A DNA stretch of 64,000 bases from Clostridiales bacterium Firm_13 (lineage in GTDB: Bacteria; Bacillota; Clostridia; Saccharofermentanales; Saccharofermentanaceae), in NCBI GenBank assembly GCA_001603035.1, contig LVAS01000059.1, positions 62,001-126,000 of the forward strand. The letters are read 5' to 3'. A program made the position numbers and the translations under genes. Every line of letters begins with the position of its first letter. The stretch's first letter is position 1. The notes beneath the pieces were generated by a model, which saw nothing but the letters and a program-made list of their open reading frames with translations, did not search any database and was not told where the DNA came from. This document shows positions 6,513-14,293 of this stretch, one piece after another.

Positions 6513-8048
6513 TCAGCCTACGGTCACGTCCGATTGTCCTAAGATCGTGCCGTCCGCAAGATACATCACAACCTTGTAGGTATCGGAAGGAATTGCCGAT
6601 CCGTCATCCATCACAAGGGACGCCGCCGCATAGAGGTATTCGTCGACGCTTGTCGTCGATGTGAAGCAGAGTGTCGACCCATTCGCATTGTAAAAATCGT
6701 AATAGATGACAAGACCTGACCAACTGTTATAAAACTCGAGATTGTATTCCAGTGTCGTCGTCGACGACGGGTAGCGGTCGACAAAAGAACCCTGATCGTA
6801 ATCGTACCATCCCTGATAGTAGATGTCCGCAAGTACCGAAGCCGAATCATACGACGTCCCGTCGGGAGACTGAAGCGACGCGGCGTAGGCATTATACTCG
6901 TCCTGTGTGATCTGTCCTTCCTGAACAAGTTCTTCCAGCGCATAAATCACGGCATCATAATAACTCGAGTCACTCATATCCTGATATTCGACATCGATGT
7001 TATAAAGTTCGGCCGGTACAACGTCGATCACCCAAGATTTCGAGTCTTCGGAAAGAGACATCTCGAAAGTGCCTTCACTCGTAAGGACCGGAGCGTCTGC
7101 CGCCGTAATTTTGTCAGATAGAATCTGCGCCGCTACATCCATCGCTTCGGAATAAGCAGCGTCTTCATCCGTCCCGCGAATACTCGCAAGGAGAATCGGC
7201 TTGATTACATCCTTGATAAACTCCGAATCCGTCGAAAGCGAATTCATAATGCTCTGGATATCGACAAGCTGCAGCGACAGCTTGACCTGCGCGGAATAAT
7301 CATCCGCTGTGTCTGCGAGAACTTCATACTTCGCCTGTCCGTAAAACAGCATCTGTATCGCTTTCTCGCTCTCGTCATCATTGAAAAAGTAAGTGTGATC
7401 ATAATAAGAGCTGAAAGAATCAATCAGATCGGCATCTCCGGATGCCAACGCAGTCATAAATGCCGTTACCGCCACAGTTGGGTCTCCGGCTGCCGGCCCG
7501 AACTTTACGTCGAGATACGGATTGCCGAGAATCTCTGTCAGAGGCTCGGTGTCAGAGATCTTCCAAATCTTGCTGCCTTTGTCATATACGAGATCTAACG
7601 TGATCTTCTCGTCCTTCGTCGGGGCATCCTTCGACTTGATCGCTTTCTTCAACGTATCAAAATCATAGCCTGTTCCGTCAAAATCTGCGAGTACATCTTC
7701 GATATCGACGCAGGTAACGACAAGATCACATGTCCCCTTGCCGTCCGACGATTTGCCGTGGATCGCCTCAATCTCATAGGACATTTCGCGAAGCCCGACA
7801 TTCATCGCTTCCTGAACCTCTTCATCGTCGAAAGAAAGGTCCGCAAACGGAGTATCTTCCGCATAATCCGACTCATATCCGTTGTCCGAAAAGGACTTCG
7901 ATCCGAGGTCATCCATATAACTCTCTACAGACTTCTTAATCTCTTCCCCGGCTCGATCATTGAACAAATTGCACGAAGAAAGAAGCATACAGCCGGACAA
8001 TGTGACTGCCGCGGCCGCCAATACCCGCCTAACGGAAAAAGAACGCAT
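6513..8048 (-). CDS. Predicted lipoprotein, uncharacterised, with repeated NTF2-like-looking modules
   Basis: Likely start MRSFSVRRVLAAAAVTLSGCMLLSSCNLF at 8048 with a lipobox and GGAGG upstream. No recognised enzymatic motif. Confidence 0.75.
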   Translation of the reverse strand: MRSFSVRRVLAAAAVTLSGCMLLSSCNLFNDRAGEEIKKSVESYMDDLGSKSFSDNGYESDYAEDTPFADLSFDDEEVQEAMNVGLREMSYEIEAIHGKSSDGKGTCDLVVTCVDIEDVLADFDGTGYDFDTLKKAIKSKDAPTKDEKITLDLVYDKGSKIWKISDTEPLTEILGNPYLDVKFGPAAGDPTVAVTAFMTALASGDADLIDSFSSYYDHTYFFNDDESEKAIQMLFYGQAKYEVLADTADDYSAQVKLSLQLVDIQSIMNSLSTDSEFIKDVIKPILLASIRGTDEDAAYSEAMDVAAQILSDKITAADAPVLTSEGTFEMSLSEDSKSWVIDVVPAELYNIDVEYQDMSDSSYYDAVIYALEELVQEGQITQDEYNAYAASLQSPDGTSYDSASVLADIYYQGWYDYDQGSFVDRYPSSTTTLEYNLEFYNSWSGLVIYYDFYNANGSTLCFTSTTSVDEYLYAAASLVMDDGSAIPSDTYKVVMYLADGTILGQSDVTVG

Positions 8049-8162
8049 AACTCCACCTCCATAACGACTCCCTATAGGGACATAATACACGAATTGCGTT
8101 GAATTGCAACGAAGTCACCACATGCGCGTATTTAACAAGTGTTGTATAGCAATGATTGCCGT

Positions 8163-9494
8163 CTAGTCGGATTCCCCGATTTGCGCGACATCGGGTAACG
8201 CCTTCATTTTGTACCAGCGGAACGCTGCGGCCAGTGTCGCAATAAATCGAAGAGAGGCGACGACGCCAAGCGTCATGATCATCGCCGATTTATTTTCACC
8301 GAGGCCACGATACATCGCGACGCCAAGAAAAGGCATGACAATATTGGAAATAAGAATAATCGAATTGAATACGGCAATGGAAAGCGTGCGATTCTTCTCC
8401 GGGATCGCCTCGAGAAGGCATTGTATCAGAGAAATCTGGAAGGCACTGTACGTCGCGCTTCCGATGCTTAAAAATACGAAATAGACAAGAATCCCCAAGA
8501 CCGGCGGTAGCAACAAGGAAATAATCAGTGTAAGACTGCAGAGCGCAAATCCCAAAGCGCCGAGTACAAACAAAAATCGAACTCCTCGACGTTTTGCAAT
8601 GCGCGTCCATAGCGGAATCGCGGCAAATTGTGTCACCGCGCAGAATACCGCGATGAGACTCATCCCCGTTTCATTCAAATGAAGGTAACGAAACTGCGCA
8701 AGAAAATAGAGCGACCAGTCCATTTCCCAACCGCAATAGACAAGAAGCGCCACCGCCAAGAAACCGAGAAAATGTCGATTGCGAAGAAGGGAACGGGCGG
8801 ACAGCCGCACATCCTTCCATCCGATACGAGTCGCCTCATTCATGTAGCCGCCTTGAATGCCGCGAAGAAAATAAACCTGTAAAAAAGCAAGCGGAAACGC
8901 AAGAATATAATATACCTGATGGATCATAATCTTCCCCGTCCCGCTCGCGATCGTCAAAATCACGCCCGCGATCAGCGGCACAACGATACTTACGGACGTC
9001 CCCATCTGGGTGCGAAAGCTGTACACGGAATTGCGATCCCCGGGCGTGACGACATCCGAAAAGAAGGCCTGCCAGGATGAATTGTAGAGTGACATCGGTA
9101 TATTCGCGATTACAAGGAGTGCGATCAATACACCGACGCGTGATTCCGGAAGAAATGCAATCGTCCCGCACAAGACGTAAATAAAACCGAGAGAAAGAAT
9201 GGAGATCATGACAACAGGTTTCTTGTTACGCAGGCGGTCCGTAAGGATCGCAAACGGGATCAGCGCGAAAAGACCGACAATCGGGGGCAACGAAGATATA
9301 AGGGAAAGTTCCGTTGCCGACGCCCCCAGTCGGCTGGCATAAAGATTGTTGTTATTATGCGCAAAAGTAAGAATCAGCGCGTAAATCATCCCCTCGATCG
9401 CAAAGCGTCCGGCGTTGCCGGAAAACCGCGCGGTAAGCTTCCCGGTACGAAATCGGGAGAATAGAGACAGGTGTTTTCTGCCGTTCGTATTCAT
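8163..9494 (-). CDS. MFS transporter
   Basis: About 12 TM segments. NNNLYASRLGASATELSLISSLPPIVGLFALIPFAILTDRLRNKKPVV is typical of the MFS loop 2-3 region. Start uncertain (9494, or up to 9581). Confidence 0.85.
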   Translation of the reverse strand: MNTNGRKHLSLFSRFRTGKLTARFSGNAGRFAIEGMIYALILTFAHNNNNLYASRLGASATELSLISSLPPIVGLFALIPFAILTDRLRNKKPVVMISILSLGFIYVLCGTIAFLPESRVGVLIALLVIANIPMSLYNSSWQAFFSDVVTPGDRNSVYSFRTQMGTSVSIVVPLIAGVILTIASGTGKIMIHQVYYILAFPLAFLQVYFLRGIQGGYMNEATRIGWKDVRLSARSLLRNRHFLGFLAVALLVYCGWEMDWSLYFLAQFRYLHLNETGMSLIAVFCAVTQFAAIPLWTRIAKRRGVRFLFVLGALGFALCSLTLIISLLLPPVLGILVYFVFLSIGSATYSAFQISLIQCLLEAIPEKNRTLSIAVFNSIILISNIVMPFLGVAMYRGLGENKSAMIMTLGVVASLRFIATLAAAFRWYKMKALPDVAQIGESD

Positions 9495-9693
9495 GGCAAT
9501 AACGGTACTCTCCGATCTTAATTGTTTAATCATTATCTCCGGATGGAGTTCTTTGGCAATACTTTTGGACAAATCCGGCAAAACTCTTCAAAACGCAACA
9601 AAATACTGATATTTGTCACAAAGGCATTTGCATTGCTTATAAGAACAAACATCGATAAAATGATTGGTATCAACCAGAAAGGCTTATTCGCAC

Positions 9694-10770
9694 ATGTTGA
9701 ATGTACTGCTAACTGATGCGGCGTTTACGGGGCTAATCCGAACTTTGCGGGATGCATATGGGGCGAATGTCCGTATTATTGGGTTGTCAGGAGATCCATA
9801 TACCGCGCATCAGGAATTGCTTGACGAATTTCTTGTCGTTAAGTACTCGCGCGATCTTGATTATGTCGATAGAATCATTCAAATTGCCAATGAATTCTCC
9901 GTCGATGTGATGATTCCGATCATCACAGACGAGTTGGAGCTTCTCGCCGAGAAGAGAACATATATCGAACAATCGACGAACGCGAAAGTCTTGATCGCCT
10001 CTTTTAATTCGATTCGCATCGCCAACGATAAGGGACTTCTCTATGATGCGTTGTCGCACTCGATTGACCCGATCATTCGAGACGTTGTCCCCCCCTTTCG
10101 AATCGCCAAAACAAAAGCCGACTTGTTCTATGCTATCCGAGAATTAAAGGCATCCGGACGCGGGGTCTGTATGAAGCGTTGTCGCGGAGAGGATGCCTCC
10201 GGATTCTATCGGATTGTCGATTTTATCCCGGCTGCCGACTTTTTTGACGAGAAGGATCGCAGAAGCCTTACAACGGATGATTTGGAGAATAAACTCCGCT
10301 CAATCGGAGAAGACGAGGCGATTCCCGAATACCTTGTCTCGGAATATCTTCCCGGCGCCGAGTGGGATTGCGACGTTCTTTGCCGCGACGGGGAACTTCT
10401 CTGTGTGACAACCCGTTTGAATCTGCAAATGTTCGGAGGGCTCACATCTGTCCTTCGCGTCGAATCGAATCCGACACTCGAGGCGCACTGCGGAAGGATT
10501 GTAAAGGAGCTAAAGCTCTCCTATGCCGCCTGCATCAGTTTTCGCGAGGATATATCCGGTGTTTATAAACTGCTAGAGATTAATCCGCGTATGATGGGGA
10601 ATATTCTTGTGTCCTCTTGGGCCGGCAATAATTACGCGAAGATGTGCGTAGATCTTCTGAATGGGCATCCGATCTCTGCGACGGTGCCGAAATCAGGGAT
10701 TGTCAGTTCTCTTTATTATGATCAGATGCGGCTTGACCGCAAAATCCCGACGGAAGAAGGAACCAAATGA
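9694..10770 (+). CDS. ATP-grasp domain protein (carbamoyl-phosphate-synthase-like ligase)
   Basis: VSEYLPGAEWDCDVLCRDGELL and YKLLEINPRMMGNI, the ATP-grasp metal-binding/catalytic motif. Likely start MLNVLLTDAAFTGLIR at 9694. Confidence 0.85.
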   Translation: MLNVLLTDAAFTGLIRTLRDAYGANVRIIGLSGDPYTAHQELLDEFLVVKYSRDLDYVDRIIQIANEFSVDVMIPIITDELELLAEKRTYIEQSTNAKVLIASFNSIRIANDKGLLYDALSHSIDPIIRDVVPPFRIAKTKADLFYAIRELKASGRGVCMKRCRGEDASGFYRIVDFIPAADFFDEKDRRSLTTDDLENKLRSIGEDEAIPEYLVSEYLPGAEWDCDVLCRDGELLCVTTRLNLQMFGGLTSVLRVESNPTLEAHCGRIVKELKLSYAACISFREDISGVYKLLEINPRMMGNILVSSWAGNNYAKMCVDLLNGHPISATVPKSGIVSSLYYDQMRLDRKIPTEEGTK

Positions 10771-11690
10771 CGAATCTGAATTTTCACAGACTGTCCGCAG
10801 CTGACCGTGACCTTTATGAAAAATATTACGCTTTATCCGGAACCGAATTGACCGATCTTACATTCTCGTGCCGTATTTCTTGGGATCCCGTCTTTCGAAC
10901 CGAGGTTGCCTTCTATTCCGACACCTGCCTGATGATTTCGGACGGAGGAGGATATACCGACCCGCACCTCCTGATGCCGCTCGGCGATTATGATTCGAAC
11001 AAATTAGATGCGATCTTGCTTTTAGTCGAGGAGGTATTCCGATCTCGCGGATGGAAACTGAAAATTATGTGTATTGACGAATCCAAGACAGATATCTTTC
11101 GATCCCTTAAACACTTCACCTGCGATCTCGCTTTTTCGGAAGATGCTTCTGACTACGTGTATGACGCCGAATCTTTACGGCTTCTCGTTGGGAACCAACT
11201 CCATAAGAAGAGAAATCATGTCAATAAGTTTGTGCGCACCTACCCGAACAGCGAATACAAATCGCTGACCGGAGCTGACAAGGAGGAATGTTTGCGCCTC
11301 GTAAGGCGTTGGTGTGAGTCAAAGGGAATTGATCCCGACGACAAGAACGAGAGCGATTATCGGATGATCGACGCACTCTTTGAAATGTATGATCAGCTCG
11401 ATTTGCGCGGCGGAATGATCCGTATTGATAATGAGGCGCGTGCTTTTTCGGTCGGACACTTGGGGAATCATAAGACGGCGTTCATTCATTTTGAAAAGGC
11501 GGACCCGGCATATGACGGAATTTATTCCGCCATCAACCAATTCGTACTGAAATCGGAATTTCCCGAAGCTTTACTGGTGAATCGCGAAGAAGATCTGGGA
11601 ATCCCCGGCCTTCGCAAAGCCAAGCAGTCTTACTTTCCGCTCTTTCTTCGAAAGAAATTCAAAACATGGCCGCAACATAAATATGAATAA
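10767..11690 (+). CDS. DUF2156 / LPG_synthase_C-like (GNAT-fold aminoacyltransferase-like) protein
   Basis: LVGNQLHKKRNHVNKF and LVNREEDLGIPGLRKAKQSYFP are characteristic of standalone DUF2156 proteins. 4-bp overlap with the ATP-grasp gene. Confidence 0.85.
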   Translation: MTNLNFHRLSAADRDLYEKYYALSGTELTDLTFSCRISWDPVFRTEVAFYSDTCLMISDGGGYTDPHLLMPLGDYDSNKLDAILLLVEEVFRSRGWKLKIMCIDESKTDIFRSLKHFTCDLAFSEDASDYVYDAESLRLLVGNQLHKKRNHVNKFVRTYPNSEYKSLTGADKEECLRLVRRWCESKGIDPDDKNESDYRMIDALFEMYDQLDLRGGMIRIDNEARAFSVGHLGNHKTAFIHFEKADPAYDGIYSAINQFVLKSEFPEALLVNREEDLGIPGLRKAKQSYFPLFLRKKFKTWPQHKYE

Positions 11691-11801: not shown

Positions 11802-12491
11802 ATGGCTTCAGCACCGCACATTCTTATTTGTGATGACGATCCCGTTGTTCATGAGTCTTTGGGTATCTATCTGGAGAACGAACACTTTACGTATTCCAGT
11901 GCCTTTGACGGGAAAGACGGACTGGCACACGTAATCGCCGACAAACCGGATCTGATTATCCTCGATCTCATGATGCCGGAAAAGACCGGAATCGAAGTTT
12001 GCCGCGAGATTCGCAAGACACTTTCAACGCCCATAATTATCCTTACCGCTAAAGGAGAAGAGATCGATCGAGTTCTCGGTCTCGAACTCGGAGCGGACGA
12101 CTATATTGTTAAGCCATTCTCCCCGCGTGAGGTTATCGCCCGTATCAAGGCGGTTCTTCGCCGTATCGCGGAGCCGCAGGAGACTGGTTCCCTTCTGCGT
12201 TTCGACGGTCTTGAGATCAACCTCGATAATTATCAGGTTAAGGTCAATAACGAACTTGTCGCATGCACACCGAAGGAAGTGGAGATTCTTCACCTGCTCG
12301 CTTCTCATTTAGGACAGGTTATGGATCGCGAGCAGATTCTGTCGCTTGTCTGGGGATATGATTATTTTGGCGATACCCGTACCGTTGATACCCACATTAA
12401 GAGGATCCGCCAAAAGATCTGCTACGAAGGTGCGCCGTGGTCTCTCATTACGGTTTACGGTGTCGGATATAAATTTGAGGTCTCCGCCTGA
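11802..12491 (+). CDS. OmpR/PhoB-family response regulator
   Basis: Receiver domain (ICDDDP, LIILDLMMPEKTG, IILTAKGEE, VKPFSPREV) plus winged helix (VDTHIKRIRQKI). Confidence 0.95.
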   Translation: MASAPHILICDDDPVVHESLGIYLENEHFTYSSAFDGKDGLAHVIADKPDLIILDLMMPEKTGIEVCREIRKTLSTPIIILTAKGEEIDRVLGLELGADDYIVKPFSPREVIARIKAVLRRIAEPQETGSLLRFDGLEINLDNYQVKVNNELVACTPKEVEILHLLASHLGQVMDREQILSLVWGYDYFGDTRTVDTHIKRIRQKICYEGAPWSLITVYGVGYKFEVSA

Positions 12492-14293
12492 TGTTTCGCA
12501 GTCCCCTTCTTCGTCGTATCGTATGCCTGATGATTCTTTCTCTCGCTGTCTCGGCGGCGCTTGCGAGCGTGCTCTTTTTTTTGGCGTCCTCTCAGACTCT
12601 TGAGGTGAATGAACAGAACACACTTCTCGAACGTGCGTATTCGATTGCCGACAACTACACAGAGCGAGATGTCGCCTTTTCCGATTATCCTTGGAAGGAA
12701 TTATCGACCGAAATTGATTTCGTCGGTTCCAACGTGTTTCTTTTTGATGCGGACGGGAAAGAGATTACTGCGTCTGCCTCTGACTCGGATGTGAGGCAGA
12801 AAGCGATTCAATATACGGAGACGTATTTGCAGGCGAATTTGCTTCCGACGCTGAGCGGAAAGACTTTTGATACCGCGATTCTTACGAAGAAAGATCTCCC
12901 CGGAAAGCTTCTGATCGTGCAAGTGCCGCTGCTCTCTTCCCAAGGGGAGATTCAGGGTTATCTTGCGCTTTCGTCTACACTCGACGCAATTTCCGCCATT
13001 CAGAAAGGCCTGATCGAAGTCCTCGCAATCTCAATATTTGTCGCTTCCTCTGCCATGCTAATCCCGATTTATTTCGCCGTTTCTCGTTTGGTAAAGCCGT
13101 TACAGGCGGTCAATTCGGCCGCGCGGAGTTTTGCCAAAGGCGACTTCTCTGTTCGCGCAAATACGCGTTCCAAAACAGAAGCCGGCGAACTGGCATTGTC
13201 ATTTAATGAACTCGCGGACCAGCTCTCCGTTTCTATTTCCGAATTGACGGTGGAACGCAATCGGTTGAAGGAGATCTTTGATGTCATATCCGAAGGTATC
13301 GTAAGCGTTGATCTTGATTTGAAGCCGGTGTATTCCAACCCGGCGATCCATACACTCTTTGAAGGTGCCAAGAAGAAGAATTTCTTCGCACAAAGGTTAC
13401 AACTCATCCCTTTCGATGAGGTGTGGGATGATTTTCGCAAGTGTATCCAGGAAGGTGTCACATTAGAAAGGACACTCGACGCACGCGACAGCGCCTATTC
13501 TTCTACGATTGTTCCGACTTTCGACAATGCGGGCAAAGTCGCAGGCGCGACGGGCTTTTTCCGCGACATCTCCGAATCGGAGCGCTTGGAACAGACGCGC
13601 CGCGACTATGTTGCGAATGTCTCTCACGAACTTCGCACCCCTCTCACCGCCCTGCGCGGACTCGTCGAACCGCTCGCCGACGGAATGGTCAAGAATGAGA
13701 CGGACCGGATGCGTTACTACGGAATTATTCTGCACGAAACAATGCGTTTGTCTCGCCTGATCGACGATATGCTTGAATTATCCCGCCTGCAGGCCCGGAC
13801 AATCGCCTTCAAAACATTCCCGTTCGACCTGAATATTCTGCTCACCGAATTGAAAACCAAGTTTACGCCGATCATGCGAGACGCCGACCTCACATTCGAT
13901 ATTGCGTTCAGAAGCGGCCCCTGCCCGACAGTTATGGGAAATCCGGATCGCGTCGAGCAGATTCTCGTTATCTTGATGGATAATGCCAAGAAATATACGC
14001 CCGCCGGCGGTTCGATTACAATTACGACCGAGTTAAACGAGAAACAGGATCAGGTTCTCGTCTCTGTTATCGACACCGGACAGGGAATTCACGAGTATGA
14101 TATCGATCACATTTTTGATCGATTCTATAAGGCAGATCGTGCGCGCGGCAAGAAGGGAACCGGCCTCGGACTTTCGATCGCGCGAGAGTTGCTGAGTTAT
14201 ATGGGAGAGACAATTTCGGTACAAAGCGAATACGGAGAAGGAACGACTTTCACGTTCACATTGAAGTGTGTACGCGGAACGTCTTGGTATTAA
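12491..14293 (+). CDS. Membrane sensor histidine kinase (HAMP-PAS-HisKA-HATPase)
   Basis: Two TM segments, VSHELRTPLTALRG H-box, DNAKKYTPAGG N-box, GTGLGLSIAREL. Adjacent to the cognate response regulator. Confidence 0.95.
   Translation: MFRSPLLRRIVCLMILSLAVSAALASVLFFLASSQTLEVNEQNTLLERAYSIADNYTERDVAFSDYPWKELSTEIDFVGSNVFLFDADGKEITASASDSDVRQKAIQYTETYLQANLLPTLSGKTFDTAILTKKDLPGKLLIVQVPLLSSQGEIQGYLALSSTLDAISAIQKGLIEVLAISIFVASSAMLIPIYFAVSRLVKPLQAVNSAARSFAKGDFSVRANTRSKTEAGELALSFNELADQLSVSISELTVERNRLKEIFDVISEGIVSVDLDLKPVYSNPAIHTLFEGAKKKNFFAQRLQLIPFDEVWDDFRKCIQEGVTLERTLDARDSAYSSTIVPTFDNAGKVAGATGFFRDISESERLEQTRRDYVANVSHELRTPLTALRGLVEPLADGMVKNETDRMRYYGIILHETMRLSRLIDDMLELSRLQARTIAFKTFPFDLNILLTELKTKFTPIMRDADLTFDIAFRSGPCPTVMGNPDRVEQILVILMDNAKKYTPAGGSITITTELNEKQDQVLVSVIDTGQGIHEYDIDHIFDRFYKADRARGKKGTGLGLSIARELLSYMGETISVQSEYGEGTTFTFTLKCVRGTSWY

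What the first reader, a model, noticed from the sequence alone, without database searches (positions are those of the whole stretch)
8163..11690. MFS / ATP-grasp / DUF2156 locus: possible uncharacterised amide-ligase plus aminoacyltransferase-like pathway with an exporter
Seen: an ATP-grasp protein (LEINPR motif) overlaps by 4 bp a standalone DUF2156 protein (LHKKRNHVNKF). An MFS gene is divergent across a short shared intergenic region. Established: ATP-grasp enzymes of this type ligate carboxylates to amines. DUF2156 is the C-terminal catalytic fold of MprF lysyl-phosphatidylglycerol synthases, but here it lacks the flippase domain. Inference: the pair makes or attaches an aminoacyl/peptidyl group and the MFS protein moves a substrate or product. 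I know of no described pathway with exactly this gene set.
Basis: partly seen in the sequence, partly recalled or inferred. Interest (0 to 1): 0.62.

Follow-up and report, generated by a model that had tools for sequence, protein, structure and literature searches.

The report
ATP-grasp ligase coupled to DUF2156 transferase
Two neighbouring genes, an ATP-driven amide-bond-making enzyme and a relative of enzymes that move amino acids off transfer RNA, travel together and are even fused into one protein in related Clostridia, so they probably make one unknown small amide or peptide together; the transporter gene beside them is not part of it.

Summary
MFS 8163-9581(-) is divergent from ATP-grasp 9694-10770(+), which overlaps DUF2156 10767-11690(+) by ATGA. 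The coupling of the last two is real. In the window's GTDB family (115 genomes) the ATP-grasp occurs in 17 genomes and always beside DUF2156: ten loci as tandem genes, eight as one 640-690 aa protein. Both halves give essentially the same tree. A second family (f24) has a related ATP-grasp beside a distant DUF2156, but convergent, in 6 of 6 genomes. Other ATP-grasp relatives in 399 phylum genomes lack it. The MFS is a bystander: genus g3 has it without the pair, g4/g5 have the pair without it, and g2 has MFS plus DUF2156 without ATP-grasp. DUF2156 folds like MprF, FemX and aminoacyl-tRNA peptide synthases, but is soluble. ATP-grasp residues are kept, except that one usual metal ligand (Gln/Asp) is an invariant Ser. 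Best reading: a two-step, sometimes bifunctional, amide synthase; substrates unknown. It is a new variant of the known ATP-grasp plus GNAT-fold amidoligase theme. In passing: DUF2156 also follows cyanophycin synthetase, and precedes or is fused to an Eis-type acetyltransferase, in other Clostridia.

The parts
9694..10770 (+). ATP-grasp amide-ligase-like protein (about 358 aa; CPS/PylC-like N domain, ATPgrasp_Ter). K113, K161, GExxxGF, E295-I-N297-P-R299 kept; S282 at the usual Gln/Asp metal-ligand position
   Evidence: start corrected from TTG 9664 to ATG 9694
10767..11690 (+). stand-alone DUF2156 (LPG_synthase_C) protein, 307 aa, tandem GNAT-like fold, no membrane domain, the only PF09924 gene in the genome
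10767..10770 (+). ATGA overlap (translational coupling); equivalent to the fusion junction in related genomes
8163..9581 (-). divergent MFS transporter; syntenic neighbour, judged not part of the system
11802..14293 (+). response regulator and histidine kinase that flank the site in genera g1, g2, g3 and some g5; marker of the insertion site, not part of the system

Best explanation
The ATP-grasp and DUF2156 genes form one cytosolic amide-synthesising module; in several relatives it is a single bifunctional protein. SHOWN by computation: the two genes are obligately linked and co-inherited, recur in a second arrangement in another family, have largely intact active-site signatures, and lack the MFS in most members. 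INFERRED: the ATP-grasp domain phosphorylates a carboxylate and joins it to an amine (amino acid, dipeptide or amino-acid-like acid), and the DUF2156 domain transfers a second group, most likely an aminoacyl group from aminoacyl-tRNA, to the same molecule. Fusion would favour channelling between the two sites. The product is more likely a soluble peptide-like metabolite than a lipid. Linked module: about 0.9. Two amide-forming steps on one molecule: about 0.55. Aminoacyl-tRNA as the donor: about 0.4.
For: In 115 genomes of the own GTDB family, 17 have both genes, 2 have only DUF2156 and none has only the ATP-grasp. Of 18 loci, 10 are tandem with short overlaps or abutting and 8 are fused as ATP-grasp then DUF2156 (one fusion, G094, is read across a masked gap; G107 is split between contig ends). 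Pfam finds both domains in one 665 aa fusion. The trees of the two halves agree on all main groups, and flanks differ between loci. In family f24, 6 of 6 genomes with a related ATP-grasp have DUF2156 next to it, convergent, with varying flanks. By contrast 0 of 11 other ATP-grasp relatives in a 399-genome phylum sample have it nearby, although DUF2156 itself is in 218 of 391 Clostridia. Fold: ATP-grasp matches 2pn1, L-amino acid ligases RizA and YwfE/BacD, and PurK. DUF2156 (pLDDT 95) matches 2hqy, then MprF/A-PGS/L-PGS, FemX and the aminoacyl-tRNA-dependent peptide synthases Sbb17/Sba18, ahead of nearly all CoA-dependent GNATs. Precedent for ATP-grasp plus GNAT-fold amidoligases in one cluster: argolaphos AlpC with AlpF/AlpO (PMC8976061).
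Against: No substrate, product or aminoacyl-tRNA dependence can be shown from sequence. No paralogous tRNA synthetase lies beside the pair. The family's invariant Ser replaces the Gln/Asp that serves as a metal ligand in carbamoyl phosphate synthetase, so catalysis may be altered. In other Clostridia DUF2156 sits beside or is fused to an acetyl-CoA-type GNAT, which fits an acyl-CoA donor as well. Most DUF2156 genes have no ATP-grasp neighbour, so DUF2156 has a function that does not need this partner. The two-domain arrangement in the fusion was not modelled confidently.
Confidence: 0.5

Rival explanations
1. The pair works like Ngg of the NAGGN osmolyte pathway: the GNAT-fold half N-acylates an amino acid with an acyl-CoA and the ATP-grasp half joins it to a second amino acid, giving an N-acyl dipeptide, possibly an osmolyte.
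For: Ngg does N-acetylation and peptide bond formation in one protein (PMC8070244). The NCBIfam model for that enzyme, named trio_acet_GNAT, is 547 positions long and its positions 237-543 align with the ATP-grasp part of CphA. DUF2156 is fused to an Acetyltransf_9 domain in G383 and G397 and adjacent to an Eis-type GNAT in about 20 of 51 sampled genomes.
Against: The order of domains is opposite (ATP-grasp first), no AsnO-like amidotransferase is beside the pair in the window, neither window protein matches the Ngg model, and the DUF2156 model is closer to tRNA-dependent transferases than to nearly all CoA GNATs.
Confidence: 0.25
2. DUF2156 aminoacylates a membrane lipid as MprF does, and the ATP-grasp prepares an unusual amino acid or peptide for it.
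For: Full-length Pfam match to LPG_synthase_C and structural similarity to MprF synthase domains. It is the only PF09924 gene in the genome.
Against: No flippase or membrane segment. A profile of this subfamily does not reach any MprF chain in the PDB even at E=10. Signature residues (RNH, HxE, NREDxGxxGLRxxKxxYxP) are those of the soluble subfamily.
Confidence: 0.1
3. The first reader's three-gene pathway, with the MFS protein exporting the product.
For: Divergent MFS orthologues next to the pair or to DUF2156 alone in genera g1 and g2.
Against: MFS is absent from all g4 and g5 genomes that carry the pair; g3 genomes have the MFS at the same site without ATP-grasp or DUF2156. The adjacency is explained by synteny.
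Confidence: 0.05
4. The pair acts on a protein, peptide or polymer, for example a cyanophycin-like or ribosomal peptide substrate, rather than on free amino acids.
For: DUF2156 directly follows cyanophycin synthetase in seven genomes of three other families.
Against: The window's genome has no cyanophycin synthetase over the family cut-off. No short precursor-peptide gene was searched for systematically beside the pair.
Confidence: 0.1

Closest known systems
2hqy, Bacteroides thetaiotaomicron stand-alone DUF2156 protein of unknown function
   Same: Same soluble subfamily as the window DUF2156: phmmer E 3.6e-40, model TM about 0.9, 29% identity
   Different: No function is recorded for it; whether it has an ATP-grasp partner was not examined
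MprF / A-PGS / L-PGS synthase domain, FemX, Sbb17/Sba18 (aminoacyl-tRNA-dependent transferases)
   Same: Tandem GNAT-like fold, TM about 0.6-0.65
   Different: 10-13% identity, not found by sequence profile; no flippase; no ATP-grasp partner in those proteins
2pn1 carbamoyl-phosphate-synthase-like ATP-grasp, RizA, YwfE/BacD L-amino acid ligases
   Same: Fold and ATP-grasp signature
   Different: Only 12-18% identity; the window family has Ser where carbamoyl phosphate synthetase has a metal-binding Gln, and a DUF2156 partner
Ngg, N-acetylglutaminylglutamine synthetase
   Same: One protein with a GNAT-fold and an ATP-grasp activity making a modified dipeptide (PMC8070244)
   Different: Opposite domain order, different GNAT family, no match by NCBIfam
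Argolaphos cluster AlpC/AlpF/AlpO/AlpN
   Same: ATP-grasp plus GNAT-type aminoacyl-tRNA ligases plus MFS in one cluster (PMC8976061)
   Different: Large phosphonate gene cluster; here a two-gene or one-gene unit without tailoring genes, and the MFS is not linked
Amidoligase survey of Iyer et al. 2009 and the 2010 class-I aaRS-like paper (PMC2922099)
   Same: General concept that ATP-grasp and MprF/Fem-type GNAT ligases are deployed in non-ribosomal peptide systems
   Different: No ATP-grasp-DUF2156 fusion was seen in the 2010 text passages read; the 2009 paper could not be read here, so it may list one

Membership tests
ATP-grasp superfamily | Curated profile match over cut-off and ATP-grasp fold | tested here: met
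   PF15632 72.3 bits against cut-off 29.1; fusion model domain matches 2pn1, RizA, PurK
ATP-grasp superfamily | ATP/Mg residues: two Lys, Gly-rich loop, E-x-N pair, and a preceding Gln/Asp/Glu metal ligand | tested here: inconclusive
   K113, K161, GExxxGF, E295, N297, R299 kept in all; the preceding ligand is Ser in all 12 family members aligned, while the 18 relatives aligned have Gln or Asp
Ter-operon ATP-grasp (PF15632 namesake) | Location in a ter operon | tested here: not met
   No Ter genes among the analysed neighbours; putative ter-type relatives form a separate clade, 98*
PF09924 LPG_synthase_C / DUF2156 | Full-length profile match and fold | tested here: met
   131.6 bits against 27.5, positions 30-294 of 298; model TM about 0.9 to 2hqy
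MprF lysyl-phosphatidylglycerol synthase | N-terminal flippase/membrane domain | tested here: not met
   307 aa soluble protein, only PF09924
MprF lysyl-phosphatidylglycerol synthase | Transfer of Lys or Ala from tRNA to phosphatidylglycerol | not testable with these tools
   Biochemical
Ngg / NAGGN synthetase | Match to TIGR03103 and adjacent AsnO amidotransferase | tested here: not met
   No NCBIfam match above cut-off and none to TIGR03103; no such neighbour
Cyanophycin synthetase system | CphA over TIGR02068 cut-off in the genome | tested here: not met
   Best 119.6 bits against cut-off 850, covering only the Mur-ligase part of the model; the genome is 80.8% complete
Anti-phage defence | PADLOC family match | tested here: not met
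   No match for the three proteins or a fusion

The most novel reading that the evidence does not exclude
Stand-alone DUF2156 proteins are general partners of ATP-grasp-type amide ligases in Clostridia, recruited at least three times (tandem/fused here, convergent in f24, behind cyanophycin synthetase in others), and the fused form is a new class of bifunctional synthase making an undescribed peptide-like metabolite, possibly with both ATP- and aminoacyl-tRNA-driven bond formation in one protein.
Probability: 0.25. Interest if true: 0.72.

Novelty: new variant of a known kind. Interest (0 to 1): 0.5.

Why it matters
PF09924 stand-alone proteins are in more than half of the sampled Clostridia (218 of 391) with no assigned function known to me. 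A natural fusion with an ATP-grasp ligase is a direct clue to their chemistry and gives a single soluble 665 aa protein in which to test it. It would also correct annotation, since such genes are named phosphatidylglycerol lysyltransferases although they lack the membrane domain and are not close to MprF by sequence.

Tried and rejected
MFS as a pathway member: rejected on distribution. Viral contigs: no relatives. Defence: no PADLOC match. Promoters/terminators: at shuffle level. Plasmid collection by tblastn: no record covers most of a fusion in one place. The DUF2156 half of the fusion model and any domain contact were below usable confidence, so the half was refolded alone. One and the same origin of the f1 and f24 pairings: the ATP-grasp trees do not reject it (AU p 0.109), while the DUF2156 tree separates them, so independence is likely but not proven. 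Iyer et al. 2009 was not held. Literature searches for ATP-grasp with DUF2156, MprF or phosphatidylglycerol lysyltransferase found no description of the pair, in an open-access library only. One family scan failed on wrong coordinates and was not needed.

Full report
Observation. Pfam assigns MFS_1, ATPgrasp_Ter plus PylC-like_N, and LPG_synthase_C. The ATG of the DUF2156 gene lies inside the end of the ATP-grasp gene (ATGA, 10767-10770). Orthologues show that the ATP-grasp starts at ATG 9694, and the MFS probably starts near 9494 (inference), so the intergenic space is about 200 bp. The window is in a 1.68 Mb genome, 80.8% complete, with one PF09924 gene.

Is the pairing more than chance? In the 115 available genomes of the same GTDB family, clear orthologues of the ATP-grasp (E below 1e-25) occur in 17 genomes, 18 loci. 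DUF2156 orthologues occur in the same 17 and in two more, G001 and G002. No genome has the ATP-grasp alone. Ten loci are tandem, abutting or overlapping by a few bases, and eight encode one protein of about 640-690 aa. In one of the eight (G094) the reading frame runs over a masked gap, and in another (G107) the gene is split between contig ends. hmmscan finds both domains in one 665 aa protein. Trees of the two halves agree on the main groups: G048 apart, a clade of g5 fusions, G057, G038a with G090, G038b with G060, and G099 with G109. G099 and G109 belong to genus g5 but carry the unfused form that groups with g4, so the unit appears to have moved between genera as one piece (inference). 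The fusions lie in two places in the trees, so fusion happened twice, or once with a later split.

Outside the family. No orthologue of comparable strength was found in the rest of the order (188 genomes). In a class sample (391 genomes) the best ATP-grasp relatives lie mostly in another family, f24. There the neighbour is again a DUF2156 gene, but tail to tail. A search of all 22 f24 genomes finds six with this ATP-grasp, and all six have the DUF2156 beside it; for G521 the ATP-grasp gene itself was placed by the genome search rather than by the ORF caller. Flanking genes vary. A phylum sample of 399 genomes gives 11 further ATP-grasp relatives, located among polysaccharide-type genes, beside PHP-domain-like genes or in putative ter operons, none with DUF2156 in the fetched neighbourhood. 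The DUF2156 proteins of f24 fall outside the clade that joins f1 with its unpaired sisters f2 and f4 (100*). The ATP-grasp trees put f24 with other ATP-grasps (95*), but a forced f1 plus f24 clade is not rejected (AU p 0.109). Two independent pairings are therefore likely, not proven.

The MFS and the site. MFS orthologues occur in genera g1, g2 and g3 only. Genus g3 has MFS divergent directly to the response regulator and kinase, with neither enzyme between them. Genus g2 has MFS, DUF2156, regulator, kinase. Genus g1, the window's, has MFS, ATP-grasp, DUF2156, regulator, kinase. In g5, genome G102 has the fusion at the same site without the MFS. The transporter is part of the conserved surroundings, not of the unit. 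In sister families f2 and f4 the DUF2156 orthologue lies in a housekeeping block of a radical SAM UPF0004 gene, IreB, RuvX and DUF1292 genes, so DUF2156 is older than the pairing and can act without this ATP-grasp.

What the proteins are. The ATP-grasp domain was modelled well inside the fusion (most 10-residue blocks above 75, many above 90) and matches 2pn1, RizA, PurK and YwfE/BacD. Lys113, Lys161, the GExxxGF loop, and Glu295, Asn297 and Arg299 are kept. The residue that is Gln in carbamoyl phosphate synthetase and Gln or Asp in all 18 aligned relatives is Ser in all 12 aligned f1 proteins. This is a consistent feature, not decay, and may reflect changed metal use. The DUF2156 protein was modelled at pLDDT 95 from 35 sequences. 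Its best solved match is 2hqy of unknown function, then DUF2156/MprF synthase domains, FemX and the streptothrisamine-binding aminoacyl-tRNA-dependent peptide synthases Sbb17 and Sba18, with most CoA-dependent GNATs lower. A sequence profile finds only 2hqy, so MprF membership is a matter of fold, not of close kinship.

How it most likely works. The ATP-grasp makes an acyl phosphate and an amide (established chemistry of the superfamily). The DUF2156 domain adds a second group to the same molecule. Fusion and co-inheritance argue for a shared substrate. Aminoacyl-tRNA is the favoured donor because of the fold, but acyl-CoA is a real alternative: the analogous Ngg protein combines N-acetylation and peptide bond formation (PMC8070244), and DUF2156 is often beside or fused to an Eis-type GNAT elsewhere. 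A soluble product is more likely than a lipid because neither enzyme has a membrane part.

Wider context noticed. In 391 Clostridia genomes, 218 have DUF2156. Among 51 distinct genomes with neighbourhoods read, 5 have the ATP-grasp of this report, 7 have cyanophycin synthetase directly upstream (with cyanophycinase before it where the fetched stretch reaches that far) and an Eis-type GNAT downstream, and about 20 have that GNAT (the first 30 were chosen by score, so these are not unbiased frequencies). This gives a third setting in which DUF2156 neighbours a ligase that contains an ATP-grasp domain. The window's own genome has no cyanophycin synthetase.

Comparison and novelty. The theme of ATP-grasp ligases with MprF/Fem-type GNAT-fold ligases is known (PMC2922099; argolaphos, PMC8976061). 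I found no description of this pair or fusion in the open-access library, but the key 2009 survey could not be read. I therefore call it a new variant of a known kind. Substrates, product and donor are unknown, and the central biochemical claim is inference.

Noticed in passing
L261:1453-7084 (also L240, L262, L264, L268): Gene order cyanophycinase (TIGR02069) - cyanophycin synthetase (TIGR02068, 1283 bits) - DUF2156 - Eis-type GNAT; cyanophycin synthetase lies next to DUF2156 in seven genomes of three Clostridia families.
   Followed up: partly
L233:5608-7401 and L234:4494-6170: Natural fusions of DUF2156 (N-terminal) with an Acetyltransf_9 GNAT domain (C-terminal) in two genomes.
   Followed up: partly
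L137:4004-9842 and similar loci L135, L136, L141-L145: In sister families the DUF2156 gene lies in a block with a UPF0004 radical SAM gene, IreB, RuvX and two DUF1292 genes, followed by a CPBP (Rce1-like) protease.
   Followed up: partly
window 10537-10539 (Ser282 of the ATP-grasp, counted from ATG 9694): Invariant Ser replaces the usual Gln/Asp metal ligand in all aligned members of the f1 ATP-grasp family.
   Followed up: yes
window 6513-8090 (-): 525 aa lipoprotein-like protein with no Pfam match, beside the MFS; diverged counterparts at the same place in genus g3 (26-31% identity).
   Followed up: no
L198:7892-10154 and L199:707-2982: Genus g3 carries the MFS and the regulator side by side, an empty version of the site.
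   Followed up: yes
L159, L160, L161: Related ATP-grasps next to PLP-enzyme-like and glycosyltransferase-type genes, apparently in surface polysaccharide clusters; no DUF2156.
   Followed up: partly
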